64,000 nt of DNA from Utricularia gibba. Lineage: Eukaryota > Streptophyta > Magnoliopsida > Lamiales > Lentibulariaceae. Numbering within the stretch: the first letter of the stretch is position 1; every line of letters starts with the position of its first letter. The stretch spans positions 496,001 to 560,000 of the forward strand of contig CM007989.1 in the NCBI GenBank assembly GCA_002189035.1, read 5' to 3'. A model generated the notes under the pieces. It was not told the DNA's origin. It was given only the letters and a program-made list of their open reading frames with translations, and made no database searches. Positions 1 through 64,000 of the stretch are shown piece after piece. The translations under genes and the position numbers were made by a program.

Positions 1-218
1 TTAAAATTTTGAAACAAAATCGACAAGTTCACCATTTTTTGATCGGTAAATTTTTTTTTATATAGTTAATAAAATTTAACTATTTGATGATTTCATGTCA
101 TAAGGTATTTGATTGGATTTTTCTAACCATAAAATCAAACATGACAAACCATTGAGCCGTACGAATGGGCTCGAAATTGAATAAGGGTCATGGAACACTA
201 CATTCCGATCATCATGAA
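1..218. other. Downstream spacer of the GDSL gene
   Basis: AT-rich sequence beyond the stop codon of the GDSL lipase gene. It presumably contains that gene's 3' UTR. I see no other coding signal. Confidence 0.5.
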
Positions 219-1532
219 TCAGGTGTCTTCCGGCGGGAATAGAACGGGAACGAGGAGCCTGGTTAGCTGCTGGGTGACGATCCGGTAAACGGGCTCCGTG
301 GGGTGTATGCTGTCGAAGAACATGTACTGGTTAGGGTTCCCACACGGGGCTCAGCTCCGTACAGAGCGGGCCGGCTTCCACCACACCGGAGCCGCAGCAA
401 CCTTTACCTGTTTCCAGGAATCCTGCATCACGAATTTGGGTGTTTTATTTGGGAAAGACAAGGATGAGGGCGATTTGGGAATGATGATAGGCTTGTGGTT
501 GTTACCGTAATGATGTGGGTTGTGGACCATGTCGAGGAGGGTGGTGAAGATGTCAGCGTACACGATTTTACTTCCCGGGAGCTGGGTTTCGATCTGAGGG
601 AGAAGCCTTTGGAGTTTCATGTTGTAAGACTGAGCATCTACGTTTTGCCGGTGGATGCATTGGCGGAGAAGCGGCGACCTCGCTGTCATTTGTATCGGTA
701 GACATCCCAGCGGCGGCAGCCCGGCCACCACGATTTTGCGACCGCCCAGTTGGTACAGCTCCTGTCACTCAAATGTCAGTAGGTTCCGGCCATCCAAAAG
801 GAACTTCCAGGAAGGTTCAGAGCTTATATGACCTCAAGGAAGGTTTGGAGCTTATTTAGCAGCAAGTCTTGGTACTTGTCAATGGTGTACTCTACGCGTC
901 TCCTGGGGATATCGTAGAAGTTGAGAACGAAGTCATTGGTGCCGGCGCTAATGATCAGCGGCGACCGGTTGAGAATTTCGGAGGCCTCGCCCTCCCCAAC
1001 GATCCCTCGAGCCTGCGAATGTATGCTCGGAAGTACTCAAGTTGACCGGAGAAGGGGATACCCAGAGAAATGGTTGTCGTCATCTCATCATACCTTTACA
1101 TAAAAAATAAACAGTTGTACTTAAGGCAGTACTTTCACATTTAAAAAGACAGAAGAGTGCGACGGGTACCCTGATCCGGCGGAAGCAAAGCTGACTCCGG
1201 TGAGAAGATCCTCCTCGGAAAGATAAGGATCAAGGAAGGGGGGAACGGTTTCCTTGAGACGAAACATGGAAGCCAGGAAGTCTGGAATGAGCTTGCCGTC
1301 GGTTAAGCGGCCGGTGGGGATGCTGCCTTGGAAGTTGAGGCCGTACGGGGGATGATTGCCTCTGAAGAGTGTGGTTATGAAGTTGTTGTTACCAGGATCC
1401 ACGGTGGAGTCTCCGAAGACGTAAGATCGCCGGAAACAGCGTCTCGTTCCCCCTTCTAGAATCCACCAGAGGGAACCAGAGGCAAAAGAAGAAGACGAAG
1501 AAGCCGCAGAAGGTGGCGGTAGAAGCAGCCAT
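219..1532 (-). CDS. GDSL esterase/lipase, four exons, reading frame broken
   Basis: A secreted plant GDSL-type esterase/lipase (SGNH hydrolase family), read on the minus strand as exons 1532-1170, 1093-833, 761-506 and 422-219 with GT-AG introns. The start MAASTATFCGFFVFFFCLWF is a signal peptide. Block I reads FPAIL then VFGDSTVDPGNNN, carrying the catalytic serine. The GxND block is SAGTNDF, and the catalytic Asp-His block is DSIHPTE near the C-terminus. Three frame breaks are seen. One lies near 1424, between FPAIL and VFGDS (one extra base or two missing). One lies near 1005, between RRLEGS and GEGEASEIL (one missing). One lies near 335-342, just before NPNQYMFF (two missing). With these adjusted the protein is about 361 residues, normal for the family. 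It is either a recent pseudogene or a gene damaged by assembly errors. The substrate cannot be told from the sequence. Confidence 0.85.
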
Positions 1533-2709
1533 GGGCGTTTTGCCTGGTTTCGCGCGTGTGAGCCGAGAATATGCAGAAGAAGAGTTGTAGTGCAACCGTC
1601 GCGGTGGCCGGCATTTAATTCGGAGCATTATGAAGGTGACCCCATAGGCCCCAGTTCACGTCTTCTGCGACCGTGACTGAGAGCACCTTCCACCTTCCAC
1701 CTTCACCCACATCCACTTTCACCTCACTAAACTCCCACTGGCCTAAACCCTAAACCAACCCTGCATCTCCCCATCCGTTTCGACGTCAATTTTATTTTTA
1801 TCGAACTCTGTCGAACAAATGAAAACGAACACCTATGTTTTGTATTCATTTATTTGATTTTATCGAACTAAAAAATTAATAAATTCTTAACCTCATGTCC
1901 ACCCAATGGCAGAGGAGCGATATGCCACATAAATTTTGGAATGTATTTACATAAAACGATACAAAATCTAATGTTGAAAATAATAATATCTTACAGTAAA
2001 AACGTCTATCTTCCATTTTCGAATTTCGTATTAAAATTTTATTAAGAGTACTACCGAGGATGAAGATGAAGCTTAATGATTTGGGAGTTTGGCTTTTTTA
2101 ATCGGTAGCCTTTTAATTAATGATGATTAAGTGCCATTAATACTACTTTGAAGTCACTAAAATAAATGGACTCATCAATGTCTTGGGTCAAAAGCAGGTG
2201 TTTTGGCAATTAAAATGTTATTCTTAAAAAAGTTGTTAATTATGAATTAGATTGGGAGGTTACCGCGTCTAATTGGACCCAAACCCAAATCACTTTTACA
2301 AACCCAACCCAACTCACACAAATCACATCAACTTCAACCCAATTGGTTATAATTCTCTTACCATCACAATCCTTTCTTCTTTTTTTTTGGAAATAAAAAT
2401 GAGTGGATTTATGATAATCTTTTAATATTGAATTAAATGCTTAAAAATAATTTTATTACTAAATTATTAAATTTAGATATAATTTTTATTTTTAGAATCG
2501 AAAAGTACAACAGAATCATCATCGATGGGCGAAATTCATTTTTTTTTATCACAATAAATATGAGGAAATGCTTTTTGTTTTTTTGTTTTTTTTAAACATA
2601 ATTTAAATTTAAAATCGTGTTGATTATAAGCGGCCGAGTGCCGACACAAACAGATAGATTTTTCAAGAGAGTTGATTGAAGTGGAATCCGCTTCTTGAAT
2701 TTCGATCTG
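1533..2709. other. Divergent intergenic region between the GDSL and PADRE genes
   Basis: About 1.2 kb between two divergently transcribed genes, so it should hold both promoters. A telobox-like AAACCCTAAACC lies near 1745-1757 in a C-rich stretch. The part nearest the PADRE gene is very AT-rich (about 2360-2620). I see no further coding sequence. Confidence 0.5.
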
Positions 2710-3084: not shown

Positions 3085-3267
3085 GTAAAGTATGTACATC
3101 TTCTATATCCTCTCTTCCTTGTTGTGATTTCAATTTCAGGACTGTTGCAGTTGCTATGAGATATCCTGCTGCTTTCTTTACAAGATGCATATAAGAAATA
3201 CGACAGATCGTCTGGATTACAACCAATCAATAAATAAAAAACTAGAGTATCTAGGCTGGTTTTGGAT

Positions 3268-5090
3268 TTAGCAAAGTAGAAAGTTCATGAAATCGTCATC
3301 TCCGGGCTCAGTTTTAGGCACACTCTGGATATGATCCAGAGTGTAGGTTGCCTGAACTTTTGAATTGTCAGGGAATAACATTAGAGCACCATTTCCCATT
3401 CCCAAGGTTGCGTTGTAGGGATTGTAAGGCAAAGGTCTGGTAACAGAATGGCTTCCGGCGACGCCGCTGCCGCGGGTTGCTGGAACCTCATGGTTGTGCC
3501 TCCCTTCATATGTCGTGATCACCGCACGATGATCGTGCGATGATCGCTCGACATGCTCTCTCACCGGGCATCCATTTGCCGTGCACTTGTAGTAGCTCCT
3601 GAAATCCGTGAGGAAAGATTAGGAATTGTTTCCTGTGATACTCAACACCTAAAGTTATGCAGATGATGAACCTTGGATTGGGATTGCCCTTGACTACTTT
3701 TTGTCCGTACTTTCTCCATCTGAAACCATCATCCAGAACATCTATGTCACTCGTAGTTTGTACAACGACTCTGGGTTCTCTTACAGCCCTACTGCTGCCT
3801 CCACTCACTGAAGAGTTTCGGTCAGTTTCAACTTCATTTTTCCTGGTACATGATATTGATGATCATCACTAAAACTTAGGGGTATGAATTGGGTTGAAGT
3901 GATTTTATTACTCACCATCTCTTAGGATCAGGTTCTTCATCATCCAAGTCATCCTTTCCGGAATGGCTCTGCTCGAAATCGTCGCCTGGTAAGGTTGAAG
4001 TATTATCAGAAGTGATCACTGAGGACCATGAATCCATTTTAGGGATCCTGGTTGAGGAAAAGGCCTTGGTATCTGAGATATCAGCCAGGTGTGAGTAACA
4101 TGAAGAAGTTGATGATCGTCTAGTGGAGTGTGGCTTGGGATGATATGTGTGCCCTTGTAAATAATTTCAGCAATGGGTCCATCTACACAGGTTTCAACTT
4201 TCTTCTTAGTTGGGCAGTTGGGGTATGTGCACTTGTAGTAGCTTCTTGGATTTTCACGGCCCTTCACCTGTTTCTGCCCGTATTTTCTCCAGTTATACCC
4301 ATCATCTAGCTTCCTTTTCGATGCGCCTGAGCTGTTATTGTTGTTGTATTCGCCATGGATGCCATCATGATTGGCTTGGATAGAAGCAATATCAGGTGAA
4401 AAGCCTTGATCTGATGAAGAATTGAAATCCTGTTTTTGATCCGATGATTCTTCTTCTACTCTGTTGTTGTTGGAAGCAGCTTGTGTTTGGTCGTAGCCCC
4501 ATAACTACAGATTCAGAAAAAAAAAAACTGAATCAGGAAAACAGGGAGAACCAAGATCAAAGAAGAGAATCAGTCAACTCACCGTGGTGCTGCCGTAATC
4601 AGTTGCTGTTGGAAGTTGCTGGTTGTTCTGAGCAGGAAAAGTGAAATCTGAGAAGCTATTTGTGTTACTTTCATCCTGCGTATCATCACTCTGCTGCTGT
4701 TTCAGCTCCTCTTGCCTCAGCCAGTCAAAGCTGCTCTTCCCATCAAGAGACCCACAGGGAAGCTCCCTGTCGTTGGAGATGGCAAAACCTGACAAAAACA
4801 CAAGAGTTACTTCAAGAAAAGCCTGGTGATTTTATGTGCGTGAACACTGACGTTAGACCCCGAGAGGAGAATGGGCGAATCGAGAAGCTCGGATGGGCTG
4901 AGCCCCGGAGGAATAGTGAACCAGGAAGAGGAAGAAGAAGGAGATATGGGAAGCGACGGCGGGGAAGAGACCTAAATTTTGGAACTCCGGAGGCGCTCCG
5001 ATTGTCGGACATAGGAGTAGTTGACTCCGATGAGTTGGGATGGGAGATGACGGCGGAGAAGTCCACACCAGCAGCAGCAGCAGCTGCCAT
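3268..5090 (-). CDS. Group I WRKY transcription factor (WRKY33-like), three single-base frame breaks
   Basis: Two-domain WRKY factor that binds W-box DNA in the nucleus. Exons run 5090-4852, 4788-4583, 4504-3916, 3842-3672 and 3598-3268. The N-terminal region carries the group I Ser-Pro motif ([19 protein letters not shown], then [13 protein letters not shown]), a MAPK-target region in WRKY33-type proteins. The first WRKY domain has [20 protein letters not shown] with C-x4-C. The second has [18 protein letters not shown] split from [20 protein letters not shown], at the conserved intron of the C-terminal domain. It ends [19 protein letters not shown]. The frame needs one added base near 4960 (C run before [13 protein letters not shown]), one near 4750 (between SFPVG and [10 protein letters not shown]), and one near 4144, where the zinc ligand motif HNH has become HII. 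With these three the exons sum exactly to 512 codons, so assembly error is the likely cause. Confidence 0.88.
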
Positions 5091-5701
5091 GGAAGGAAGA
5101 TGTGGTGAGGGGCGACCATCATCTTTGTGCTTGTTTAAAAGAGGCGCCGCTTTTGACCCTGCAGAAATCTCTCAAATCATGTCTAATTATTACATTTAAT
5201 GCAAGTAGCCAAGTTTTCTCTGCGTTGACCACATTACATAATAATAGTTTCAATTTTTTTTAAAAAAATAATTGTTTTTATTATACAAAATATTTTAAAA
5301 TGCATTTAAAAAATATTAAATTCAATTTTTATTGCATTTAAAACATTGACCTATTTCCTACCACATATAAATTAAACAAATATACTTATATTATGTAACT
5401 TAACAAATGAAAAAAAGGTGAAAAGTGACATAGTCGGTGCAGTTTGACCAACTCCGAGTTTTAGTGCGGACTTGTTCTGTCCCCGTTCACACGCTGCTTC
5501 GCCAGGTCGCCATAGGCTGGGCCGGCCACGTCATAGCTCACGGGTCAGTCCGGTCAAAGAACCTTAGATACTCCGAAGGCCCAGCCAGGAGCCACCCTGA
5601 AGATGAATGAATAGAAGGAAAACAATGCTGTCTGTGAAGGAGGCATCATCATAAGGTGGGTGAGATTCGGCGTCTCTTTCCAGTTTCCAGCCGATGTGAT
5701 G
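5091..5701. other. Spacer between the WRKY promoter and the LTN1 3' end
   Basis: Contains the WRKY upstream region. This includes a TTTGACC W-box-like sequence near 5152-5158, GTTGACC near 5224-5230 and TTTGACC near 5444, which fit auto-regulation by WRKY proteins. An AT-rich core and the LTN1 3' UTR follow. I see no additional gene. Confidence 0.45.
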
Positions 5702-8700
5702 TCATCGGAAGGTGGACTGGCAGAGAGGGCAGTTGGACTTGTGGGAAGTTGAGAACCACTTGTTGAGACAAGAAGAGTGGAATTTGTGCTTGCAAGTTTT
5801 GCAGGCGAGGCGTGGGAGGCTGTGGTTGGCGGTGTGGATGATGCTGTAGCAGATTGGGCATTCCTCTACCCCTTCGAACTCCTTGTCGAAGTTGCTCTTC
5901 CATATTCTTATGGCTTCAGCGATGGCCCCATTCTGCGTCATAACACAAATCAAGATGCCCACCTAAGGTAATGCAATGCAATGGAGAATTACCATCAGTC
6001 ATGCCATGAGGGAAAGTACCTGGTTGCGGACGAATGCCACCAAGGACAGCATCCATTTCCTTTGCTTCACCGAGCTGATGCCAAGGCTCTTGGTGCAGTC
6101 TATTTCGACAGACTTGAGGGGATACGATGGCGGCAGACGGATGACGAGATCCATCCTCGACTCCTCCTTTGTGTATGTGGCCACAATCTCGTTCGCTACT
6201 TTGCTCACGGTGACGGAGAAGACCTCACCTGCAAAATCTGCCTTCCTGATCTGCATTACGAGTAGGGGAAGCCTGAGATACCAGAGGCAACAGAAGAAAC
6301 GAGAATAATAAATTGCATCAGGCGTACCTGAAGCAGCTCATCAGCTATTAACAATGTGCTGCACCATGCTTTTGTGAAGGATTCGATGGCAGAAGCTACT
6401 GAACGATCTCTTATGTTGCTAAACCACCCACGGACGTATGCTGGTAGGCTGCGAAGCATTAAACCAAATACTGCACCGGAAAGTGAGGTCATGCTCTCAG
6501 GAGTGACAGGCCAAAGTGTCTCGAGATAAGAAACAACGGAGCACGTTGTGACGGCATGAGATGCAGCCTTGGCAGCATCTGAAAGTGCAGCAGAAGCTTC
6601 ATGCTTTTTCTTTGAAATACTTCCCATGTATGGGTCCAACGATATGTGTTGGAAAATGCAGTCCAATATGAGTGTGTTGGTGGAATTTTGCACATATTGA
6701 ATAATTCTGTCCCTTGCTGGTGATGATGGGGGCAAAGACGAGACATAGGACAACAGCAAACACCAAGCAACTAAAGTGTTCACCTTCAAATTTAACAAAT
6801 AAGGGAACAAAAGTCAACACAAGCATGCGCACCCATACAATAAAAAAAGCGAGAAAGAAAGAAAGCCACGGAAAGCATTTGAAAGGGAAGGAGGGGTGAC
6901 ACATGACATACCCGTTCATGCGCATCTAAATCCATTGCAAAAACCTCAAGAGATACACTAGTTATATATTGAGAAACCTCGTCTCTTAATCTGACATTTT
7001 CTTCTAATGATGCATCAAGAGAGTCATCATTTATTGATATACCATCGGATCAGTTATCAAAGCTGACTGAAGCATAGGCTCTGTTGACAGAAGAACAAAA
7101 GCTGCAAATTGAAGAGGAGGGAATGGCTTGCGTGAAAACAGTACAGCATAAAGGGAGCTTATGGGTCCTTTACTCATCCCCCAAAGCTGAAAAGATTTTA
7201 TTGCCTTGTCCCTTGCATAAGGACTAGAGTGAATAGCGCATGAAGCAACCAAATCCCATAACATTCGATGGCTGCATCGAAATGATGCAATAATAGCTGA
7301 TCCCTCATCATAACATGCATCCGCTATAGCTTCAGCACCGGCAGTGCAGAAGAACAAACGAAGAATATCTTCAAAGATACGATCCTTGGTAAACTCCCAC
7401 TTCTCTTCCTGTAATGGATTTATAGAATGTTTTTCTTCTTGCAACACAGCATCGGAACAACACAAACAAAATCCGACAAGGGCATTATTAGCAAGCTCCA
7501 GTGGCAAAGAGTCGCAAGTTTCAAGAAGCTTACTCAGAGAAAGTTTTACATCATCAGATCTATTCAAAAAAATATCGTTAATATTTTCCACAATTTCTTC
7601 CATTAGCACGACTGCTGTTCCAATCCAAGATCTTAACTGGTGCAAAGCATATCTCCAATCATCTTCATCGAAAGTGTCTGAGCAGTATGCTACTGAAACA
7701 ACAATTAATTTGGACAAGAGCTTCTGTGCCAGTGGAAGCTTACTTACTACAGCCGATGTACCCTGCTTCTGCTTCTGAAATAATTCATACAGAACAGCTT
7801 TCTCCGCTGGTGAAACATGCCTACCTGGTTTTATATTTTGCACTCCGGCCTCTAGATTTATAGGTAAACACGCTATAATCAATTGAACCCAGTCCTCCAT
7901 ATCTGAGATAAGGCATTTCAAGTCACGCATCACTCATTATAAAAAAATTCCATTCCAATACTTAAGCTGACAGATTTTTTTTAAGCATTTGCCCCTCCTA
8001 AGCATGCATATCACTGATAAGACTTTTTTCAAATTCTGATACATATCTTATCTTATACTAAGTAGAACGACAAATAGATAAAATGAAAGAGTACCTTCAC
8101 CACTGTGCCATAAATTCACAGGAGGAAATGCCGTACATCTCTTGATCCAGTCTATAGTTGTGCAATGCAACTGGTTACAAGGATCAGATATACAATCCCC
8201 TTGACCATCGCATCCAGCCGTTAATGGTACAACAAGGTTACACATAATATATGGAAGAATATGCAAGCAAGATAAGTTTAGATCGCCACCAATATAAAGC
8301 TTGCCTAGTAGTAGTTCAAAGAGTGACGAAGCCTTGTCTTTTGCCCATAACTTATGCTCAAAAAATGAAGAGAGTATGCACAAAACACCCCTCAAACATG
8401 GTCCTTCAACATTATCTAACTCATCAATTGACGGATACCATAATAGATTTAAGCCACTGCCAACTCCATGTGCAAGAGAACCCTCAAGCAAAATATTGAA
8501 AACAGTATCGGAAAAGGAACCACTTTCGCTCTTAATGAACTTGAGAAAATTATCTAAAAAAGAATGCAGTACGCTGCCACCACGCCATTTCCATGTGCAA
8601 ATGATTTCAGCAGCAAGCCAAGGACGAGAATTTGTGGACTGATGGATAGCCAGGTCCACATCAGCATTGCTTATTGAAGGAGATGAAACAATACCAGAAA

Positions 8701-11700
8701 CAACACGATCAAATCCAAGTTCAGATACCAAGCCATCAATCAAAGCTATAAAAGTAGTATTTCGTGATGCCTGCACAACACGAGTCTGTTATTGTGGAAG
8801 AAATGAGAAATAAAACCATCGAAGACACAAAAAAAAAGAGGCTAAGATTTGAATCTAGAAGTTAGGCCTAAGATTTTTGCAGAGAAGATTCAATGAACTT
8901 ACATGTAGATGAAAGGTTTCACATTTCGTTCTGCCACACACATCTGGATCATGCCAAAAGTCATTCTTGCTTAGGAGCTGGTCTAATAGTTGTTGTTCCT
9001 CAAGTTCATCTAAACAGATATTTTGAAAAACATCAACTGCCCAACGGCAGCAGTAAGGTGTTAGCTTCTCCGGCTTAAACTTAGAATCAACAGAGCAAAT
9101 CTGTTTTATGGATGCGATCAATTTTGACCCCAAGCACTTCCTAGTTTCTTTATCTAAGCCCCTCAAAAACTTATGAAATATACTGCTGTGTCGAAAAGCA
9201 TGAACAGCATCGCAAAAGGCTAATCTGGGACCATTTTCCCCCAGTGTATCTTCATCAGGGACGTCCTTTGATTCATTTATCCAGTTACACATCCAGTCAA
9301 TGATAAATATTGCAGCTAAAATATCTTCAACTAATCCGATTTCAGTACCAATAGTTTTCAGGCAAAAAAGACTATCCCTTAGAACATCCAGGAAAAGAAT
9401 AGCAGCATCCATTACACTACTAGAGAAATCTGAATTCCAGTCAGAATTCGTATGGCCAGAAATTAAGCAAGGGAATGCATCCTGAACCCAAGGTACAGTA
9501 GAATGCTTTATGAAACTAAGAATCATTCTGTGGGCTTCTTGAAATATGAAAACTACTGTTTCTGGGAAAGGAATGGAGCTTCATGAAGTTCTGATGATCC
9601 ACCAAGAGCAGCACTGCATACATAAGATTAGGGAAAAAAAAAAAGTTCTTATGATGATACCATGAATAAACATTTGCGGAAAATGGACAAAACAACAGCA
9701 ACATGAATGGAGTGAAAAGTACTACTTAAACTCCTTATTCCTTATTTGTTATCATAGTAAAGAACAAAATTCCTTGTCGCTAGATAAGCCAATGCTTTCC
9801 AAAATCGAATTTGCTACGAACATCAGGAGCAGCAATGCTATAACATTTTAGAAGACAAATGATATTCCTTGAGGAACAAAATATAACAGACCCTTGGCTT
9901 TTTCCAGACTACCTTCACAGGATTTCATACATCATTTTCCTTGTTAATGAAACAATAAAATACAGGAAGACTAGTAAAATACAACATCTTTCATTTTAAC
10001 CTGATGTAGGAAAAGCTGCACAAGACTAGATTATACTTTATGGAGAATTCAGCGGGCATACCATAAGAAACAAGTATCAGCGGCTCTGATATTCGGGAAA
10101 TTTTTCACAATGCTAATGGAAACAAAATCTAAAAGATCGTGTTGCCAACTGTATTTTGCAAAATCAGATGATACTGAACTCCTTTCAGTTCTTTTCCTAG
10201 CCTTTTCAACCAAAATTGCCAAAATAGATGAATCATGTCCATTCTGGGTACCATGATCAAGATAAACTTGTTCTCGATCAATCAAATATGCCAGAATCAT
10301 ATCCCACTGCTGAGTTAAGTACCCGTCATCAAGAAATCCAAGCAACAGATCCAATCTGGCGGATCTGGAGAAATTGAAATCCTTCAAACACCAGGGAATG
10401 ATTGTCTCCTTGAAAGATTCCAGGAACGGCTTGTCATCTGAACCATGTTTTGCAAGCTCTTGAGCAATAGTTGTAGGTCCAAATATCGACACAGAAGCTA
10501 GAATAAGCTCAACGGCGACAGATGAGTCCTGGAGAAGGGACACATACAAAAATGAAAAATTGGGTGAGAACGACATGCATGATTCAAAATGATTGAAGAA
10601 GCAGAAAAAAAAAAAAAGGATACACATGATTCCCTTCGAAGTGTATAAAAAAGAAAAGCAGCTCATTTCATACAAGCATAAGATAATTGTGGAAAGCTTC
10701 AAGGCAATGGTTTGTTGTAAAACAAGAACTACTTTCTATCCATAATTAGGTTCTCATTCCTCTCACGCCAACTGCCAATTTTCCGAAATTGTAACTATTC
10801 AAATTCTACATAATTATATCAAATACAGGTTTTCACATCCTTACATTCCACAATAAAGGCTTTACACAAAACTATAACAGAGATGAAGAGTTGTTATCCT
10901 TCATACAAAAAGAATAACGAGAATAAACTTCTGAAGGTACTTACTCTTGAAACTTCTAGAGGAAATAACATTTGGACCGTGGGAAGCACTAAATAAGGCA
11001 ACGGCCATGCTTCCTCTCCTGCATGCTTGTCAAGCAGTTTAATAAATTTAACAGCCCATTGCCCACATGCATCAGAATTCTCAAAATTCTGAAATGCAAT
11101 TTTGCAGTTCGCTTGAAATCTCGAAGAGAAAATAAAAAGAAGATCATGACTGAGAGAATAGATCCCAGAGAGTATTTTAACTATGCATTCCCCAATAATG
11201 CTCTCATAGGTTGTTTTGTGCTTGCTGTCAACTACTGCTCTAAGTTCCTTATCAATAGTTTGCGCACTGTTAGACACTTGGCTGTTTGCGTCCATATTAC
11301 TTAAACTAGAAACCGCCTGATATTCATGCCATAAAAGTTCCAACAGTATCTCATCAACAAGGAGATGCTGTAAACGGAGAATGCCATCTGCTCCATCACA
11401 GTATCTATGAAAAGAAACTGTAGCGTGAACAAAAAGAATTGGGGAAATTTAAAAAAAAAACACAAGATGTGATACAGAGAAGGAATATATGCATTTAAAC
11501 CTGCATGCGTTTCTCAATACCCAAAGATAGCATTCTTCCACTGCCCGGAGAAAAGCAAGAAGATCTGAGGATGAGGAATAAGACAGTTTTCTCCCTTCCC
11601 AAAGGCTTCGGAAAAAATCTAGAAAAAACTTGTCTCCTGTAATTACCTTTGATGGTATTGTTTCTAAAAATACAACTAGAGCTGGATAAGACACCTTTTG

Positions 11701-13909
11701 AGACCCAAAGCAACCATGCCTCAGAAAGTTCCATAACCTGTTAAATACAGTTTTCTGCACATTGACTGCAAACCAACTTTCAGGAAAACTTTTGCTAAAA
11801 AATAACACAGTGTCCCACATGAATGGGTGACAAGCAGGATTCTGCTCTTGGAAAGAACCTAATATTGCCCCAGCAAGCAACTCTGTATCACCTTCATGAA
11901 CCGTGCAAGGAATATTCTTAATGCAACTTTTTAACAATGAATATGCAGCAGAACGCGTATCTGCATTATGTGACTTCAAATAGTCCAAAAAGTATTTGTG
12001 ACTTGAGAGTAACTTCTCTGCAACCGGAAGAGCCACAGTCCTAGCTCTCACAGATATCTTTGATTCTGTGCTTACATTCCCCGAGTCAAAAAGTTCCATC
12101 TGTGAGGCCAGTACATCAAGAAGTGCTGCAAGTGCCAGTAATGATGAAGAAATGGCCTGACATCAAGAAATGACTTTCAACAGAAATATCCTAAGAGCCA
12201 CCGACATTTAAACATAAATGCACAAAGTGACGTTCCCTGGATGGTTCCATGTTAAACTAACGACTCAATGATATAAGAAGAGAGAAAAATGGTTCGCAAA
12301 TGCAGCACCAAGAATTTCAAGTCGATCAGCTTGTCCAAAAGAGAGCAGAAACTTTCCAACATTGCACATTACCATCTCTCTACCAGAAGTCCATGACAAT
12401 TGCAGAGACTTTTATGTCTCATTTTTCACAGAAAGAATGGCAACAGTAAGTCATATTCACTGAAATAAAAAATGCTATCAGTTATCACTACCTTCTGGTG
12501 CACTTCTTCCAATTCGTCAGCTGCAGCAGCTTTATCTGACAAGCTCTGTGGGTTTAGATTCAGATTTTCTTCAATATAGGAAAAAATTTCAGCGGAGTAC
12601 ATAATCAGCGCATCCATTCTTCTGTCTTGAACCGGAAAAGCAGCCTGGGAATTAACATAGTCATCATTAGTCCTACAGAAGAAACCAAAAAAAGGAATAC
12701 TAAGCCATCTTTTGAAACAAGAAAGAGAACACAAAACTGATAAGGCTTTTATACGCCTTTTTAAACCTGAAAGGACCGTATTGCTGCTTGAGAAACTTCA
12801 GGTGCTGAATCAAACTGAGAAAACCACCACGGCCCCATAAGTAGCTTTAGATGTGGAGCCAACCCTCTTCTGCAAAATGAAGGAATTTAGAGAAACTGTG
12901 CCTGCGTCGCTAGTATTGACTGAAGTCAAAGCTACAAGAAGAAAAAACAATGAACAAGTTTCTCAGAAGGGCTCTACACCAGAAGGACGCAACCATCCAG
13001 GCAAACCAACAAGATCTGACCATGAGATAAAATGGTATACTGATACAAGACTAATCCGACTCAAAGTGAAATAACTAACTAGACACTAACCCCACAGTAC
13101 CAACAAGATTAGTCATGGTCTCATGCGCTGCTCGTCGAACTTCTCTGTTGTAGTCGATAATTAGTTTCTTGTACTCAAATCCCTATGTTATTTGGGACAA
13201 GTTAAAAAAACGTAATATTGCCATATACAGACGAAGAACATTCATTTCTGTGTTGATGTTCAAAAATGAAGATGTGCATTTGATGGGTAAGCATACCCAC
13301 AGAGGAATTACGGTAACAATCCCTGCTGACGCTTTCTCGTTAAATAGCTGAGAGAGCACTTGCAAAGCTTTGAGCTGAAAACAAAATAATGGAACGACAC
13401 TTTTTTATGACTTTAATGAAAATGTCAAAAAAATTATCGTGACTGCATCTTCCCCTACACATAGCACTAAAAGTCACCTTCGTAATTGGATCTTTGCGGG
13501 AAAGACGCTTTAGGTGCTGCGCTATTTCAGCATCAACATCCTGATAAAACCGCCGGCACAAAACCAATACAGAATCATAAAACCAAATTTGTCCAAACAT
13601 TGAAATTGAAGATAAAAAACGGAGCAAAAAAAAAAAAAACTGACCAACAAAGCCGAAGCATCTGTTGTAGACGGCAAAGAAGATTCAACTCGCGAACTCC
13701 CTACATAGCCTCCAAAGCCAACCGCCGCAGCTCCCGACGCCAATAGCGAAGCGGACATACTGAAAAGAGTTGTACACCGAACTGGATATTGCGAAGCCCT
13801 AAGCAGCAAGAATCCAAAAAAAGCAGGCAGAAATATCAAAGAAGGTCTAAAACCTGCTGCTGGAGGGGCGCGACTTGGTTCTCGCGGCATCTCCTTTGTC
13901 TCTCCCCAT
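5702..13909 (-). CDS. LTN1: E3 ubiquitin-protein ligase listerin
   Basis: Listerin is the RING E3 of the ribosome quality control complex. It binds 60S subunits carrying stalled nascent chains and ubiquitinates the chains. This is the longest gene in the window, with many exons on the minus strand. The start is [18 protein letters not shown] at 13909, spliced onto [20 protein letters not shown], the conserved listerin N-terminus. HEAT-like helical segments follow. One exon reads [19 protein letters not shown], another [20 protein letters not shown]. The RWD-like region lies about 6000-6256, and the final exon (5702 to about 5950) holds the [34 protein letters not shown], then W and CPLC. One single-base deletion near 9564 (TCCC for an expected TCCCC) breaks the frame just before [14 protein letters not shown]. 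The rest reads through. Site II motifs lie just upstream of the start. Confidence 0.92.
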
Positions 13910-14926: not shown

Positions 14927-16959
14927 CTAATTACAAGACGTCCTCGTTGTTCTCCTGTGGAGGATAAGGGCAAGAACTGTCCCCACGCCGCATAAGGCGC
15001 CCCAAATTATGAAGGTGTAGTGGTAGCAGTTCTGTCCGGAGCAGTCCCCCACACTCGTAGCTGAAGAAGAACCCGCCGTAGCAGCGGCATACCTGCTGTA
15101 CACCAGAGCTGCCAGATCCCCGAATAGGAAGGACCCCACGGGATGTTCGACACCAGGATGTTGTGGTTCACCCCGAAGTTCTTGGTGCCGAAGAGCTCCG
15201 CCGTCGCCGGCACTGAGATGGAGGTTATGGCGCCGGTGCACACGCCGATCCCGCCGTGCTGATGTACAGTGCCGTCTCCTTGGCGCTCATCAGCAGGAAG
15301 AAGGAGGCGCAGAGGGCACCATCATGATGCCCATGGCCCCGGCTCTCGTCACCATGTGTTTGCACCTGAAACAATGACGAAAGAAATCAACACCTACTTC
15401 TTTGTGCGGGCAGCTCTGCATTAACTCTGGGAGTGGTTTCATTCCTGCAAAATAATTGCCTCCCCTTTTTCTCTCTGTTTTTTTTATTTGTTTATTATTC
15501 TTTATTTACGTAGGCAAATAATTGCGCGATGGAGATGATGAGTTTCATGGGTAGCCATGAGCGGAGCTTGTGCTCTGCGTATTCCCCACGTCGCCTGCTC
15601 TACGTGTAACTTTTGCATACAGAAACGCCTTTTTCACGCACTCATCTTCAGACCCATTTCGACCGCCTACGTGTACGCACCATTTTTTTTTCTCTAAGCA
15701 AGGTGTCACCTAACAGTAAATGTAGGTTCAATGCTTTGTCAATGGCTATTTCCCCCCACTGTAAATGGGGCATGGGATGTTTGATGTTCATCTGGATAGT
15801 TTATAGTTAAAATTTTGATTTGGGGATGGGTAGGTAGATAGTTAGTTAGTTACCTGGGGAAGAAGAAGTCGAGGAGGGACGGAAGGAGGCGGCCGAAGAA
15901 ACCAAAGGCGGCGGAGAGGGAAACCAGGGATGAGGCATCCTCACAGCCGCGGGACTGGGCGATTTGTCCGAGATTGTTCAAGTAAACCAGTCCCAGAGTG
16001 GCTCCGAAGAAGTAGACCATGTAGTATAACCAGAAATTGAGAGTTTTCACCATTTCCAGAGCTCCGACTTCGCAGGCTCCGCCTGTTTCAGTCTCTGTTG
16101 TTTGCTGCCCATTTTCCAGGCTTTTCAAGCTGACTTCTTTTGTGTTGAAGGCCTCATCGTGTACTCTGATCAAGCACCTCCCTTTCACCTTCTCCCTTAT
16201 GCTCTCCGCAATCGGAACGACGACCGGCAACGCCAGAAGCAGCCACATCCCCGTGACGATGGCGTATTTCGACATCATGGCTTTCACCGTTTCCAGACTC
16301 GTGACCACCGCGAAACTACCCGTTAAAATCGTGATGAGGAACATGAAGAAGAAGCCATTGGTTAATCGCTTCGATGTCTTGGGTTCGACGCTCCTCATCA
16401 GGGGAGACAGAGCAATGCAGAGTATCCCCGGAACGACGGCGTTCACCAGTAGGAACGCCTTGGCCCTGTCGCTGGGGGATTTTGTCGGGATCACATCCAC
16501 AATGTCTGTGTAAATCTTGGCGCTTAATCCAATATAACTGGTCGATATTCCGACGGCGATCTGACGATCCAAAGGGTAGCTCTTGATGACGGTGACGTAA
16601 CAAACGGTGTTGATCCAGCAGATACTGTTCCCCGCCAGAACCGTGAGAAGAAAGATTTGCCAGTACGCCAAGCTCTCGATCTCCCCCGTCAGAAACAGGA
16701 ACTGGAAGCCGTACCCCACAAGAGCCAGAAGGAAGCCGATACAGAGCACAATCCAGAGAGGGAAGTACGCAGCTGCCAGACCGGAAACCCAGCCGAATAA
16801 CTTCCCGGCGTCAGAGGCAGAGGCCAGATTATTGAGCTGCATCTGCGATATAGAGAGCAGCTTCTTGAGCTCCGAGGAGTAGGCCGGAAAATTGGAGTTG
16901 GTGCCGTTGATCGCCTGGAGCCAAATAGCAGACACGAGTGCCAGCCATTGAAGCGCCAT
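14927..16959 (-). CDS. NFD4-like nodulin-like/MFS membrane transporter, second exon frame-broken
   Basis: A polytopic membrane protein of the plant Nodulin-like/MFS family (NFD4/UNE2-type). Exon 1 (16959-15854) is intact: MALQWLALVSAIWLQAING, then WVSGLAAAYFPLW and IFLLTVLAGNSICWINT. It ends in LDFFFPR, where the intron splits the Arg codon. Exon 2 (15365-14927) continues CKHMVTRAGAMGIMMV and holds the family's C-terminal helices: GVCTGAITSISVPATAELFG, NFGVNHNILVSNIP, GSFLFGDLAALVYS and YTFIIWGALCGVGTVLALIL. Exon 2 needs three single-base additions, near 15315, 15252 and 15138, all next to C/G runs. With them the two exons total exactly 515 codons. Some family members are linked to vacuolar, iron or nutrient transport. 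The substrate here is not known. Confidence 0.88.
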
Positions 16960-19900
16960 TGAAACCCCAAGTGTGTGTCTCTGTGTGTGACGCGACTTGG
17001 GAAGAGGACCATGGAGTGGAGCGGTGTATTTATAGTGACGATGGGGGGTGTCCCCAACTGCATTAAACACATCACTCCCCTCCCTTTTACCGCTTCTCCA
17101 GAAATCGATCAAATCCTCACGTTCCAATATTCCGATCTCCAAAATCCAACTTTCCGGGTGCCGGTTTTTCACATTTTACTTCACAATTTCGTGTCCCAAA
17201 ACTCCCCCCCCCCCCCCCCTAGCATCTTCCTAGATCTTGAAAACCCTACAACTTGCCAAAATCAACCCCCACAGTGCCCCCCGCCGGGTCAGAACTTCCT
17301 ACAAGAATAAAAAAACAAAGTAGAGTCAAGATGTAATAAACGTGGCATCCAAAGTAAATTCCTTTTTCAATCGTGATTAAGAATGATCAAACTCTTTCCA
17401 ATCCCCATAGTCATGAAAAAGTGGCGAATCCAACGGGGGAGACAAGGGTCCTAGCCCCTCCCCTTTGAAAAAAACAAAACAAATAAATCCAGAAAAAAAA
17501 AAACCACACAGAGACACATGCACAACAACACACAGCACCAGGGTTTGGTCTCCCATAGAATCCATCATCTTTAGCGTGTTAAGATTAAAGATTGGATGGT
17601 TACAATAAACATACGTGAAATTAAAATACATAAAAAAATATAAATTATATAAGAAAAATATTAAATACAAAAGATTATTAATATTTTATAATTTATTATA
17701 TACTTGATTATTTTAATTTCAAATATTGATATAGAATTATTTATTATAATACATGTTTTCCTTTCATCTCATCATTTAGGGAATTAGAACTGCAAATCAG
17801 GTTATATTTACCTAAAACCTCGCTAATTAAGTTAATTATGGTGAGAGGGTGGCAAGTCAGACACGGCCATTTCCCAACTTGACTCCTTCCTACCCTAATC
17901 AAATCCCGTGTCTCCTCCCTTCCCTATTTTTTTTTCGAGTATTTAATTAATAATATATTTGAATTGATTGAAATTTTACCAATTCAACAAGTAACTCTTT
18001 TACTTTCAAAACTGGCCTAAAAGGGTTAAACCAACCTGCCTATTTTATCCAATTTTCCATAAATATTAGTAATGTGTTGTAAGTATTTTCTCAACGGTTA
18101 TCAGTTATTATGGTAAAGAAAATTTCCCATGCATTAAATAATATCTTCTAGTGGGAGCTAGGAAGAACAATTCTTTGCTCTAGTACACGTAAGCATGACT
18201 CCTAGTATTACATCATCGACATACGTAAAGATGATTTTGAAAAGTAATCATTGTGTGTGTGAAAAATAACAATCCTATATATAAAATTTTGGTTTTAATG
18301 TGTGAAAAAAAATATTAGTATGGTTAATTTTCAAAAAGGCCTCTTACATACATATATGTCCTTTGTATGTGTGTTCGTGTTGGCAAGACATAATATTTGA
18401 TCATGGAGATGGTGTTACTCTGCCATAATCATCGTATCAAATACATTTATATTTATGCAATAATCCACACGAACGGAAGGAGTTGCGCGACAGGGGGGTT
18501 GCCGCCGGTGCATTGGAACTTAGGGTTTATTCTCTGGTGATAAGGCAAGGGCTTGTGCATGAGAATATTGGTATTGCTTCTCCGAGTATGTGGCTGGCCT
18601 TGCACGGAGATGGCTGCCGGGAGGGCGTGGCGGGACTACAGCCCATGTTAGAGGAATCCGAATCTCAGCCGTTTGATTGGATTCGCGGCATCTCGATGTT
18701 GACCGTTGGATTGGATTCGGCGGGAACTGCAGTCAAGTCCCCCTCGTACCTCAATCAATAGTGGACACGTGTCCGTACGCCATGCTCTGCCACGTGTCAC
18801 ACTTTAAGGCCCTCCCGTCCCATCAATTAATTAATTGTTTTGTATGATACGTGATTAATTAATATCACATTTAATTGATGAATAAATTTAAAAAATGGAT
18901 TCGATCCATTCAATAATATTTTATTTTTTCAAGATATATCACTATTTTATTTCTTTATAAATAATAAATCACTGATAAAAAAAATTATTTAGCTCACGTG
19001 TCTAGGGTTTGATCGATCGCTCTAACAATTGGGTAAGAATTCCGAAACGCATGTTAATAGATCCAAGGGAACGCCCGACCACTCTGTTGCGTGTTCCCTT
19101 TCCAACAAATCACCCGGTTGGGTTTAGGGTTTGCGTCACCGTACAACGTGTGAGCTACTGCGTTTCTGAGGTCGCCGTTGCGTGATCGGGGCTTCAATTG
19201 ACTTGAAAAAGGAATGAGAGGAGGAGTCGCATCCTGAGTGTTTGAGCGTCAACATATCCCAAATTGGCGACTCCCTCCCAGTCCCAGATCCTAGGCGTTA
19301 GCCCACCTACGCCACGATTACTTGGTCGCACGACACTGAACCAATTTGCTGAAACATGCCAAGAGAAGATGGGTGGCGTCACGTGTAGTGCTTGCAACGG
19401 GACGGGAAAAGCGTCGGGTATGCATGGCTTTCGAAAATCAACGGTCTTGCGCATGGGTTCTAGAGGCATCGGGCTCTGATGCCGTGCCCCGCATCTCCTG
19501 TGCCGGAATCGATCACGCCACGACACGGCATAACTTGTGGGTTGTTTTAAGGCATTAGTTCCTGAAAAGGGAGGGCTACTAGGGCTTTTACACTGAATTG
19601 AGAGATGCCAAAAGAACAAAAAGAGAAAGAAGTGTTCTCGCCCCGGTTCTGATGCGTTATATTCGATCCTCTGTTTCCATTAGGGTTTGTTAGGTCTGAT
19701 AAATAATCTAAGTATTTCGAAACCCCATGGGCCTATCCCGAGGAAGACTAGAGGCTTGATATTGGATCCGGCCCGCAAAACATCATCGATCGAAGCTGCC
19801 GTGCGCCTGACAAAAGTGGTTCCTGTTTTAAATTTCAAAATTGACGGGCGACTGCCGACGGTGGTCGGCGACCGGCCGGCGGCGACAGTAGGTGGTGGAA

Positions 19901-39399: not shown

Positions 39400-40550
<1,151 letters not shown>

Positions 40551-42095: not shown

Positions 42096-42428
42096 TTCAC
42101 ATCACTCATTCTACATCCCTGTTAAGTCTAGGCAACTTTGATCTTCCCTTCTTGTGGATACATTTTCTAGTGGAATGCATCACTGTTAGCCAAATCTTCT
42201 CCCCTCTTCGACTCCTGATTTAATCCCCATCAACTTACAGAGAAAGAAATAAATCCAATACTTAATCAGGTTGATTGATACAGGAAGCACAACACTACTC
42301 TGGTAAGCTGTAAAGAACGAACGAGTTCTACAATATGGCTACTGGCTTCATCATCTGTCAAGTCTTGATAGAAATGTATATAGGATACGGACGATATTTC
42401 ACAAGCAATCCAGTGCCCATCTTCCTGC
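42096..42428. other. Convergent spacer
   Basis: 3' side of the RPL10 relic and 3' UTR of the KH-domain gene. I see no coding signal. Confidence 0.4.
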
Positions 42429-44393: not shown

Positions 44394-45747
44394 GGTTTCA
44401 GAACATGTATAAGGGAAGCCCTCGACAATCTACCAACGAAAGAAGGGAAGATACATAGTCAGCAAGTATTGAAAAAGAGAATCTTGCATCGTAAAAAGGT
44501 AAGGAGTGAATCAAATCAGGAAACGAACTAGACTCTTGTTCTGTTTTTCCTTTCCACTCCGACAGCGGACACTGGTATGGAAACCCTGCTGGTACAGGAG
44601 GGACACCGTAAAAACACAAAAAGAATCGAGGAAAAGGGGCACCCTTTTTCCAAGCTTTGATGAACTGGAAGAGGGTCGAATAGCAGTGGTGGCAAACAGA
44701 GAATCCATCAAGGCTTGACGCCTTTTCCCAGGTCAAAATTCGATTTTCACCACGATTCATTTTACAACTTACAGCAAGAGTACAGTTTACCTGGTGACAG
44801 TGTTTTGTACATGGGGTGGCGGTAGATGAGACAAGAGCTATTCCGCGGGTCGAGGCTTCAATGCAGTTCGCCAAATGCCAGCGATGGTTTCCTTTAACGC
44901 CATCTTCTACTTCTCTGTGCCCGGACCGTAAAATCAGGCGTTTCATAATCCGTGACCCCTACACCTCCATCCACCATCGTTTCCATTCTTTTGCAACTCC
45001 AGCGTTCACAATGATGCATCCAAAAACCCATACCCCAGCAACTCCACTGTTCATAAAGACACATCCAAAAACCCATTACCCAACACGTTCTTGATCCCCT
45101 TTCTAATCCCAAAACTCCCATTCATCGATCACCAAGCAACAAACAAGCATCATAGGTCACTTGTCTTCCCTGATAGCCTATTATATTGACCATTATCACA
45201 TGAACTCCCTCAAATTATTCTCCTTATACTCTGCAATAATTTCAAGTATCCCCAGTAGCTCCTAACCGTTCACATGGGGTATACCTACCCCTAGTTTGAT
45301 TACCTCCATTTATTTGTTTTATTACATTGATCTTGTTGTTTCGTATCTGGAAAATTCATTGCAACGCCAACTTATGAAATTATGAGGTGCCCATTTTAAA
45401 GACATTTAACTAAAGGGTCACCCTTAGTGCCATTAAATAAGTCATAAAGGATCTGCTCTAGAACACACATGTTCTTGGACAAGAAACTAAGGGGAAAAAA
45501 TTGTAATAAATACCATTGAATAATTTAATTTCCTTTTTCTTTTTCTTTGTAGCTGTTAGTTGAGTCTCTGTTATGTCACTTTTGCCTGTACTTATTCAGC
45601 TGTTGGTTGAAACTTGAAAATCTGATTGAACTGAACGACAAGTGCTGCTGCAATCGCAGAGATCAAATTCTTCACCCCAGGGATCAAAGCAAAGAAAGAA
45701 TTGAATGGAATGGAAAAAAAGTGCTACTGATAAGGAGGTGAATTCGG
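44394..45747. other. KH-gene promoter and spacer to the DUF1191 gene
   Basis: 1.35 kb. Contains the upstream region of the KH gene, a 45-base tandem duplication (listed separately) and AT-rich DNA around 45180-45560. Long open frames on the minus strand at 44398-44946 show no similarity that I recognise. Confidence 0.4.
44993..45082. repeat. Two-copy 45-bp tandem repeat
   Basis: Unit 1 (44993-45037) and unit 2 (45038-45082) both begin GCAACTCCA, share CATCCAAAAACCCAT and end in ACCCA. They differ at roughly nine positions. They are adjacent with no spacer. Confidence 0.8.
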
Positions 45748-46672
45748 CTACGGTACAAACTCTGTTTCAATCGCTGGCCTTGTCCGAGTCTCCGCCGCTA
45801 CCGGTGCCTTCGTGCCACCCACGTTGGTCATCGGTAAGGGGACTCCCCCTTCTGCGGCCGCTTCCATTTGCCGGATCTTCTTCCGCCGGAGGCAGCCTAT
45901 TAAGAATGAAATGGTGACTGCTAATAGAACAAGCAGTGCTAGTCCCCGATCACTGAGCCAAGGATAATCCACAATCTCCGGTTGTTACCGGTGCGATGCT
46001 CCGGATAAGGAGGAGGGGGAGGAGGAGGAGGAGAGGTGGCAGGAGGAGGGAAAGTGAGGATTCAGTGACAATGGAGAAATGGCCTTGGTTATTAGTCAAG
46101 CAACTGTTTTGATTCACCACATCACTGAGTTCAAGAGAGCCATTCAAGCTAAAGTAAGCACACATAGATGGGGATCCATGGTGAAGAACCAAATCTGAGA
46201 ATGTGACTGAAATGGGCTGATTCAAAGCTCGAATGTCGAGCAGGGGTAAGTTCTGAGCAGACAAATTAGAGGCATCATAAGCTAAAACAGCAATAACAGG
46301 GGACAAGAAGGTGTGGCCAGGAGGCAAATGGTAGTAGTAAGAAGACCAGTTACCCAAATTTAGGTACACCAGAGCGAGTCTCTCAACATAGGGATGAACC
46401 ACAACGCCCGCCGGAATGTTAAACTCGTGGTACCCAGAAAACCCCCTCCGCCACAAACTGCCGCTCCTCAACCGCAGCGCCGCCACCCGAATGCCGGTCA
46501 AATTGGAAGGGGACTGTCCTTCATAAACAGTTCCAGTCCTTGGCCTGGCAAAAGCCCTAAAGGCGTAATCTTGAAGCAGAGTATCAAGCTCATTTCTAGG
46601 AACTAGATCTCCAGAGTGTTGACCAGAAACCAGATGAAGAAGAAGAAGAAGAAGTAGAAGAACGAGGAGCAT
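45748..46672 (-). CDS. DUF1191 membrane protein, two single-base frame breaks
   Basis: Plant-specific, probably plasma-membrane or endomembrane protein of unknown function (DUF1191). Start MLLVLLLLLLLLHLVSG is a signal peptide. The conserved ectodomain follows: NELDTLLQDYAFRAFARPRT, then SNLTGIRVAALRLRSGSL and EFNIPAGVVVHPYVERLALV. Next come NLGNWSSYYYHLPPGH, LLDIRALNQPISVTFSD and NQGHFSIVTESSLS. A Pro-rich linker and a membrane helix (WIILGSVIGG, LALLVLLAVTISFLIGC) precede a basic cytoplasmic tail. The linker needs one base near 46049 (CCC for CCCC) and the start of the helix one base near 45945 (GGGG for GGGGG). With both the total is exactly 308 codons. Without them the protein would lose its anchor. 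Confidence 0.87.
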
Positions 46673-48120
46673 TGATAGAAAAACAGATGGCCCAGGATTC
46701 AGAAGCCTTTTTCTCCAGACAGAAAGCAAGATAACAAAAACTCCTCGCCACCCATGTGGATTCAGAGCTGCTACAGTAGAAATGCAGATCAAATGACCTC
46801 AGATTCGCCGAAAACACCCATAAAAACTTGCTCTTTTCTTGGCATCACAGAGATTCCTGCTCCCGGCCCCCAAAGTGAAGGTTAAAAAATAAATAAATGA
46901 AAAAGAAAAAGGCAAGGCAACAAATAAATAAATGGCGAAGCAACCAACCCAACCCACAGCTGTGCTCCGGGCGCCCCCCACCGGAGATTCTTCAAATTCG
47001 TTTATACTAAAACACCTAGCCAATAACAGCACTCCACGTCAGCATCTAACGGAAAATAGAAAAATAATAAATGAGATATTGCTATAACAATCGCATTGAT
47101 GTGACCCCCAATTTATTTATTTATAGCAATTTAGAAATTAAGCGACGCGTGTGATTTGATCATTAAGACACGAGATAACGACCGGCGACTTCAAACCGTA
47201 TTTTTTCCTATGAAAATTAAAATCTTAAAAAAAAGTCAATAATCATTTTTCTAAAAGCAACTTTTTCTCTATTATTAAATTAAAATTAGTTTCTTTTCCG
47301 TATAAACCGTCAATTTAATACACACAACTTTATCCAATCCCATCATCATATTGTCTCTACGAGAATAATCATTTTTTTAAACCATAAATTTATTATTATA
47401 ATTAGATTCCAAAAACTAATTTCTCCATATTCAATTTTACAAAAAAAAAAAAAAAGAAAGGAAGAAGAAATTGGAAGCATAAGAATTGTACCTTGTGGGT
47501 GGTGCAGTGTCGCATGAATTTCACCTAGGTATAGAGTAGATAAACCTATGCCTATAATCGATAGTAAGATAAACCTCAACCAGAACGTTGAGTTTTCAAG
47601 GGAGAAATGAGGATCTAATCCAAGAATAGATGAAAAAACCTTAAACAAATACCATATTGAGATAAGGAGAGAAGTTCTATAAATTTAATTAAAATTTATT
47701 ATTAAATATCAAAATTGAGTTCATTTCATTAGAATAATAATCTTTTTCAAATAGTTTAAATATAATTAATAAATCATTAAACTCAATTCAGTACATTATA
47801 GAAAATTTAATCCAACTACGTAATTAAATAAAAGAATTAATCCACACGGTGAGTGAAATATCATCAGCCCCAGGCCCAAGATCGTGGGCGTTAATTTGCG
47901 GGCTTATTACAGATGGCTACGGCCCAAACTTATGATCGGAATGATTTTTTTTTATTTTTTTTTGAAAAAATATGCTTATTTCTTTAATTTAAAAAAGAAA
48001 TAAAATACCACTGATTTCCTTACCTTCATCCTCCTTATCGCTTCCTCTACCATACAGGATGGATCTCTTCATTCTTCCGCCAAGTGGCTTCATTTCCATT
48101 GTATTTCCTCTGCACGTAAC
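46673..48120. other. Divergent intergenic region
   Basis: Promoters of the DUF1191 gene (-) and the plastid-type gene (+). It is AT-rich from about 47050 to 47860, with an A15-like run near 47440-47455. GGCCCA motifs at about 47872 and 47930 lie upstream of the rightward gene. No gene is recognised. Confidence 0.45.
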
Positions 48121-52148: not shown

Positions 52149-52408
52149 TTTTCCTGAAGCTTTGTGGTTCTTTAGCCCCAAATTGATGTTGGTTTGCTGC
52201 TTTCAAGACTTCTATTATGCATTGCGTTGGTTTATCAAGAAAGATTTACCTTCCGGATGTGAGTGTATCAGAAAATGTTGTCACAAGTTTATATTGTGGA
52301 CATCTTTCATTTCAGTCTCATATAATTCCTATGCTCCGTTCACTGATCACACATCCAAAACTGTGATAAATACTGGAATCCAGTCAAGAGTAAATATTTA
52401 CTGAGTCT
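52149..52408. other. Convergent 3' spacer
   Basis: 3' UTRs of RPL15 (+) and the MnmG gene (-). The two coding regions end about 260 bases apart. Confidence 0.4.
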
Positions 52409-61783: not shown

Positions 61784-62296
61784 CATGGATTCTCCTGAAC
61801 GAAGTCACCAACCATCACCTGCTCCAGCTCCATGCACAAGGTTACTGCACTCAAAGCAGCGATTCCAAGAGCCACAAGTCTTGGCTGGTTTGATCCCGGT
61901 ACATTACTTTTGCTTTCATGAAAAGGCTGGTATGATGAGTACTGATGGTCTTGTTGGCCATTTTGTGGGAGCATCATCAAAGTTTGGTCTCCTTTCACAG
62001 AAGTTCATTTCTCCCAATCCCAAGCCTCTAGGTTTCTTGAACGCCTGATTTCAGATGCAGAGGAGCTCAACACATGGGACATACGACGAAAGCTTGCGTG
62101 ATAAGAATCAATAAGAAAAGGAAATTAATTAAAACTAATTTTCCATAATGATAAATACATGGGTCATGATTTTAAACGGCCAGCCAAAATAGTTACTGGG
62201 CTTAGGCCCAATAAGGTCTAGGCCCATAGAATGGGGTCTTGGACCGATCGCGCTTCTTTTCCATCCTCCATAAAATTACGAAAGCTGGAGAAAGTA
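61784..62296. other. Spacer between oligoribonuclease and the last gene
   Basis: The left part is the 3' UTR of the oligoribonuclease gene, with an open but unrecognised frame at 61785-62048. The right part carries site II-type motifs (TGGGCTTAGGCCCAAT at about 62198-62213 and TAGGCCCATAG at about 62218-62228), 70-100 bases upstream of the next start. I see no other gene. Confidence 0.5.
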
Positions 62297-64000
62297 ATGG
62301 AATTTATCAAAAAAAAAAAAAAAAAGGCTGCTGCTGCGGCCGTCGGAATCGGAAGGGGAGGAGTAGGGATTTTGGGAGACACGTAGGTAATCAGGCTTTT
62401 GTCCTCTTTTTGAACTTTGGGTGAGCTGTTGGCTAGTTTGTTGAGCTGGGAAGCTTGTGGATTTGAATTTTAGGGATACGTTTGTGAGTGTTTTCTCAAT
62501 TTGTAAGCCAATTTTTGGCAGGAGATTGTCTACTTTAGGGATGCTTCAGTTGTTTTTAGACGAGACGACCTGGGATGATGATGAGTTCCTTGTGGATAAA
62601 GCATCCCCTCTTGAGAAGTTAGAATCAGTACTATGGTCTTTGATGACGGCAACCGGATTATCTGAAGCTCGTCTCTGGCTCTGTGATACACTATCCGCCA
62701 TAACCTCGATCAGTCGTCCAGGCCAGCGAGACTTATTCTTGAAGCTATTGAAATCTGAGACAGTGAAGCTGCAGTTAGCACCGCAAGTTCTGCAACTGAT
62801 TTTTGAGAAACGACCACAAAAACTGGGGCCAGTAATAGCGAAGAAAAGTCGCAAGCTTGTGAACTACTTTGAAGGTTAGTCATCATGTTGTTTCATATTC
62901 GTTTTATTGCACCTCCATAGTCTGCTTCTAGTTTGTCTTGAACAGATTTGATTACCTCAGTAGTAGTATCTGTTTCCTTCATCAGGGAATCCAAGGCGTA
63001 TATTGCAATGGTTTTCAAGTTTTTCATCTAGTGGTGATGTGGGGCATGCGAAGGGTGCCAGGGCACTCTCCCAGTTTGCTTTTATAAATCGTGATATATG
63101 CTGGGAGGAACTTGAGTGGAAAGGTAAACATGGACAATCACCAGCCATGGTGGCAACAAAGCCTCACTACTTTCTTGATCTGGATGTTCAACGAACAGTT
63201 GAAAATTTTCTAGAGTATGTGCCTGAGTTTTGGTCATCTGATGAGTTTTCTGAGTCGTTGATGGATGGTGACATTTTTTTGACTGATCCTAGTTACTTCA
63301 TCGATTTCTTCATTGACTGTATGTATGAGGAGAAACTACAAGAGGTTTGGGATGTTATAGAGGAATTTTTAGTGCAGCAACCTTTTGCATTATTGTGTCA
63401 GCACCTTCTGATCGGTCTACAGGAGCAAGGGTTGCGTATTTTCATAGATTCGATTCCAAAATATCTTGAGGCGAAGTCAAAATCATCGAAGTCCAGACCT
63501 GCCACTGAATGGCTAGAGATTATTATATCCAAATTTCGTGATTCATTGAACTTCGATAATCTGCTTCTACTGAATGCATTGACTAATCAAAGCCGACAAC
63601 TTATCAGATTTGTCAAGGAAGAAGGGAGTGATGAAGAAAAGGGAAGGATAAAGGAATTGGCCCATCAACTATCTGAATTGTCTGGCAATGTCAAATCCTC
63701 TTTACCAATACTCAGAGAAGGTCATGTTGTAAAAGCATTAGAGTCAGTAAAGAACTTTGGCTTGCTTTCATGGGCTATACACTTAAGGTTATCAGAAGAA
63801 TTTGTGACCTCAGCATCATGGGAATCCGCTTTTACTGGCAATGGTATCAAATATGTCAGATCTGAGCGATACAGTTTACCTTCAGATGATCCAAATGATG
63901 ACTATGAATCACAAAATGCTGTAGGCTGTTCCATGAGCACCAAGCACAGGAAATTCAAAGGACAAGGAAAGAAAAGAAAACTAAGGTCTAGTCCTGCTGC
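62297..64000 (+). CDS. 5' part of a large plant protein of unknown function, runs off the window
   Basis: I do not recognise the family. Exons 62297-62382, 62522-62874 and 62986 to beyond 64000 join in frame. The start MEFIKKKKKKAAAAAVGIGR comes from a run of 17 A followed by GCT repeats. It is followed by DTRLSTLGMLQLFLDETTWD and LVDKASPLEKLESVLWSLMT. Next come LWLCDTLSAITSISRPGQRD and LAPQVLQLIFEKRPQKLGPV. Exon 3 reads QFAFINRDICWEELEWKGKH, then HYFLDLDVQRTVENFLEYVP and SYFIDFFIDCMYEEKLQEVW. Later it has LREGHVVKALESVKNFGLLS, and near the edge a basic stretch (KHRKFKGQGKKRKLRS) that could be a nuclear signal. The region is helix-rich with no known domain, and no stop occurs before 64000. 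The Met start sits behind two site II motifs, which supports it. Confidence 0.7.

What the first reader, a model, noticed from the sequence alone, without database searches (positions are those of the whole stretch)
1..64000. Recurring single-base deletions in otherwise well-preserved genes
I count about eleven places, in six genes, where adding one base restores a family-typical protein. They are: GDSL near 1005; WRKY near 4960, 4750 and 4144; LTN1 near 9564; the transporter near 15315, 15252 and 15138; DUF1191 near 46049 and 45945; and TLC near 57018. In WRKY, the transporter, DUF1191 and TLC the corrected exons total exactly 3n. Almost all changes are in one direction and many sit beside C/G runs. 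That pattern fits uncorrected long-read consensus error better than independent pseudogenisation of housekeeping genes. Gene models drawn from this sequence will be wrong at these points.
Basis: partly seen in the sequence, partly recalled or inferred. Interest (0 to 1): 0.75.

Follow-up and report, generated by a model that had tools for sequence, protein, structure and literature searches.

The report
Long-read assembly errors breaking plant genes
The missing single bases that appear to break six genes in this plant DNA are almost certainly mistakes in a long-read genome assembly, not dead genes; the same mistakes occur across the whole assembly, mostly in short runs of C or G, so gene models and gene-loss claims built on it need checking.

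Summary
Ten of the eleven sites are supported by a homeolog, paralogs, a profile split or splice phase; the eleventh (DUF1191 near 46049) fits but is ambiguous. In WRKY, the homeologous copy on contig C317 has one extra base at exactly the three sites. DUF1191 near 45945 lacks a base that two other copies have. The NFD4-type transporter is split over three frames where paralogs read straight through. The TLC copy and its homeolog both lack a base in the same C run, while a paralog without that run is open.

The interpretation also holds, and the problem is genome-wide. In 40 GRAS loci (48 kb) I found 19 single-base deletions against at most 2 insertions, concentrated at C/G runs (P about 1e-7). 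Overlapping ends of contigs C414 and C416 give the same 2.2 kb twice. They differ by 27 gap bases and 2 substitutions, and break one gene at different places. No natural pseudogene does this. The assembly fits the published PacBio/HGAP Utricularia gibba genome. This is a known kind of artefact: practically important, biologically ordinary.

The parts
219..1532 (-). GDSL lipase gene with indels near 1423 (net +1), 1005 (-1) and 342 (net +1 or -2)
   Evidence: frame reading; PF00657 split over two frames
3268..5090 (-). group I WRKY gene; single-base deletions near 4960, 4750, 4144
   Evidence: alignment to homeolog C317; PF03106; codon-position differences
4957..4964 (-). WRKY deletion: C4 where homeolog has C5
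4748..4754 (-). WRKY deletion: G3 where homeolog has G4
4141..4147 (-). WRKY deletion: CATATCAT where homeolog has CATAATCAT
5700..13900 (-). LTN1/listerin-type E3 ligase gene (limits approximate); deletion near 9564
   Evidence: Pfam PF22999, PF23009, RING; splice phase
14927..16960 (-). NFD4/nodulin-like transporter gene; deletions near 15315, 15252, 15138
   Evidence: PF06813 and PF23262; paralogs read through
45740..46690 (-). DUF1191 gene; net -1 near 46049 and deletion near 45945
   Evidence: PF06697; alignment to C317 and C412
56915..58300 (-). TLC-domain gene, 3' part; deletion near 57018 shared by homeolog C317

Best explanation
The sequence is a consensus from noisy single-molecule long reads that was not fully corrected. 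Homopolymer length, above all of C/G runs, was under-called, so single bases are missing at roughly 0.5 per kb of coding DNA. The genes in the plant are intact. Shown here: same-locus indel discrepancies, genome-wide recurrence, C/G-run dependence, intact frames in paralogs. Inferred: that the platform is PacBio CLR/HGAP and the species Utricularia gibba, and that a full short-read polish was lacking or incomplete.
For: Contigs C414 (end) and C416 (start) hold the same 2.2 kb with 27 gap bases and 2 substitutions; the GRAS gene there is broken at different points in each, and each copy has the base the other lacks. C316 vs C412: one missing C in a C4 run and one substitution in 1352 bp. 40 GRAS loci, 48 kb: 19 single-base deletions, 2 sites read as two missing bases, at most 2 insertions; C/G run of 4 or more within 9 nt at 10 of 19 deletions vs 7% background (P 1.5e-7). 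At the GGPP motif the three copies with observed C5-C6 are all broken there, and no copy with a run of 4 or less is broken by a homopolymer loss. Five of nine G/C runs of length 6 in GRAS coding sequence lie within 7 nt of a frameshift. Window vs homeolog: one-base gaps exactly at the claimed sites. 516 contigs, 100.1 Mb, several near 3.4 Mb and one of 6.82 Mb match U. gibba, HGAP, N50 3.4 Mb (PMC5793159) and its Unitig_8 of 6.8 Mb (PMC8333044).
Against: No reads or second assembly of the window itself were available. A few sites (4144; some GRAS sites) are not in a C/G run. GDSL has one or two net +1 events. TLC shares its missing base with its homeolog, so that site could be an old real change; runs of 5 are usually right in GRAS genes. 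Contig ends (C414/C416) may be worse than average.
Confidence: 0.96

Rival explanations
1. The genes are true pseudogenes, inactivated independently after whole-genome duplication.
For: Duplicate copies exist on C317, C412 and C1:6.5 Mb, so redundancy would permit loss; one GRAS locus (L021) looks truly degenerate.
Against: The changes are almost only single-base deletions, with essentially no in-frame stop after correction. The same locus assembled twice is broken at different places. Third-position excess remains downstream of the break in WRKY exon 1 (5, 0, 11 differences at codon positions 1, 2, 3). LTN1 and NFD4 had no close second copy in the searches.
Confidence: 0.03
2. The frameshifts are real in the DNA and are bypassed by transcriptional slippage or programmed -1 frameshifting at C/G runs.
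For: Breaks favour C/G runs and need -1 re-reading; the TLC site and the following frame are conserved in two homeologs.
Against: The same-locus contigs disagree about which bases are missing; sites outside runs (4144) and net +1 sites would need other mechanisms; unrelated families are affected genome-wide.
Confidence: 0.01

Closest known systems
[quoted passage not shown] described in PMC12007338)
   Same: Single-base deletions in homopolymers, frameshifts that mimic pseudogenes, few substitutions, reading frames otherwise intact
   Different: PMC12007338 deals with small genomes and mostly nanopore data; here it is a 100 Mb plant assembly with a strong C/G bias
Degraded duplicate pseudogenes after whole-genome duplication
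   Same: Broken frames in families that hold duplicate copies
   Different: No accumulation of stops or larger deletions; breakpoints follow run length; redundant contigs disagree

Membership tests
Long-read consensus indel error | Two independent consensus sequences of one locus differ mainly by indels | tested here: met
   C414/C416: 27 gap bases, 2 substitutions in 2.2 kb
Long-read consensus indel error | Indels are mostly single-base deletions and favour homopolymers | tested here: met
   GRAS: 19 single-base deletions vs at most 2 insertions, C/G-run enrichment P about 1e-7; window sites
Long-read consensus indel error | Affects unrelated genes across the genome | tested here: met
   GRAS on many contigs; Exo70 C412:710344-711409 in three overlapping pieces
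Long-read consensus indel error | Short reads from the same plant restore the bases | not testable with these tools
   No reads are held
Pseudogene | Disabling mutations include stops and larger indels and are fixed at one place in the locus | tested here: not met
   No in-frame stops in the corrected window genes read here; redundant contigs break at different places
Pseudogene | Loss of codon-position constraint | tested here: inconclusive
   WRKY exon 1 keeps third-position excess after the break; exon 3 after 4144 is less clear (15, 7, 14) and exon 2 was measured in a wrong frame

The most novel reading that the evidence does not exclude
At least one shared site (TLC near 57018, where both homeologs lack the same base but keep the downstream frame) is a real, conserved shift that is bypassed by -1 recoding or slippage.
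Probability: 0.02. Interest if true: 0.6.

Novelty: not a real feature. Interest (0 to 1): 0.15.

Why it matters
It matters only in practice. Gene models, pseudogene counts and claims of gene loss drawn from this assembly are unreliable wherever a C/G run lies in an exon. For example, three of four DELLA-type GRAS copies are broken within a few codons of one motif, which would look like loss of gibberellin repressors.

Tried and rejected
A second copy of the window itself was sought for direct comparison and none was found; only homeologs at 66-86% identity turned up (window 40001-44000 was not searched). GRAS L009 (FS4 at GTAAG), L013 (gap of about 370 nt) and L016 (gap of about 150 nt) were taken as introns. 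A general shortage of long G/C runs was looked for: the window has no run of 7-15 against about 3 expected, which is too few to decide. Exon 2 of WRKY was placed in the wrong frame and is not used.

Full report
What was checked. The window is bases 496001-560000 of contig C1 in an assembly of 100,091,633 bases and 516 contigs. Several sampled contigs are 3.2-3.5 Mb and one is 6,822,880 bases. That fits the published Utricularia gibba PacBio assembly (HGAP, contig N50 3.4 Mb, PMC5793159; 'Unitig_8 (6.8 Mb)', PMC8333044). The species is an inference from these sizes and was not tested by a marker gene.

The listed sites. A homeologous stretch lies on C317 at about 810-851 kb, with further partial copies on C412 and at C1:6.5 Mb. 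Against C317 the WRKY gene lacks exactly one base near 4960 (CCCC vs CCCCC), 4750 (GGG vs GGGG) and 4144 (CATATCAT vs CATAATCAT). DUF1191 lacks one base near 45945 against both C317 and C412. Near 46049 it differs by 14 bases in a CTC-rich tract, which is net 3n-1 but does not pin a base. The transporter passes through three frames over about 200 bases. NFD4_C profile segments 117-157 and 153-211 overlap in the DNA but sit in different frames, while paralogs are open across the whole stretch. In LTN1, splice phase leads into a frame that ends in a stop and one missing base joins it to the long downstream frame; no second copy was found to confirm this. GDSL near 1005 needs one base beside GGG. 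In TLC near 57018, window and C317 both lack one base in the same C run; a paralog with CCA TCA at that place is open and aligns without a gap.

Genome-wide control. GRAS genes were chosen because they mostly have a single coding exon. A profile search gave 70 matches, many of them two or three overlapping pieces of one gene in different frames. Forty loci (48 kb) were fetched and aligned with a frameshift-aware aligner. There were 19 single-base deletions, 2 sites read as two missing bases, and 2 read as insertions, one of which is probably an intron donor. A C/G run of 4 or more lies within 9 nt of 10 of the 19 deletions, against 7% of random positions (P 1.5e-7); A/T runs show no such excess. 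At the GGPP motif, copies with observed C5 or C6 (L006, L007, L010) are all broken there, and no copy with a run of 4 or less is broken by a homopolymer loss (L005 and L008 break nearby in other contexts). Of nine G/C runs of length 6 in these coding sequences, five lie within 7 nt of a frameshift; of thirty runs of 5, one does. Exo70, a second family, is mostly intact but has a locus in three overlapping pieces. The window's rate, about 13 events in a rough estimate of 20 kb of coding DNA, is of the same order as the GRAS rate.

Direct evidence inside the assembly. The end of contig C414 and the start of C416 are the same 2.2 kb. They differ by 27 gap bases, mostly in short runs, and 2 substitutions. 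The GRAS gene there is broken by a missing G in C416 and by other gaps in C414, and each copy has what the other lacks. Natural alleles or pseudogenes do not differ that way. C316 and C412 differ by one C in a C4 run and one substitution in 1352 bases.

Selection. In the frame of the homeolog, WRKY exon 1 after the 4960 break has 5, 0 and 11 differences at codon positions 1, 2 and 3, as expected for a working gene. The segment after 4144 is less clear (15, 7, 14).

Conclusion. The kind of artefact is well described (for example PMC12007338). What remains open is the final test with reads, and the TLC site, where the shared missing base could in principle be real.

Noticed in passing
   Followed up: yes
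L006, L007, L008, L027: Four DELLA-type GRAS copies; three are frameshifted within a few codons of the same GGPP/GGAP motif, and the fourth, without a C run there, is intact.
   Followed up: yes
L011/L049 (C414 end) and L020/L048 (C416 start): Unmerged overlapping contig ends that hold the same 2.2 kb; useful as an internal measure of consensus error.
   Followed up: yes
window 3000-62000: Collinear homeologous copy on C317:810-851 kb, with further partial copies on C412:863-902 kb (reverse) and C1:6.50-6.53 Mb, consistent with more than one whole-genome duplication.
   Followed up: partly
window 14251-14504 and 20397-20947: Two dispersed repeats, each with many genome-wide copies at about 70-80% identity; 17584-17764 is a smaller one.
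   Followed up: no
window (G/C run length 16): One G/C homopolymer of 16 bases although no other G/C run exceeds 6.
   Followed up: no
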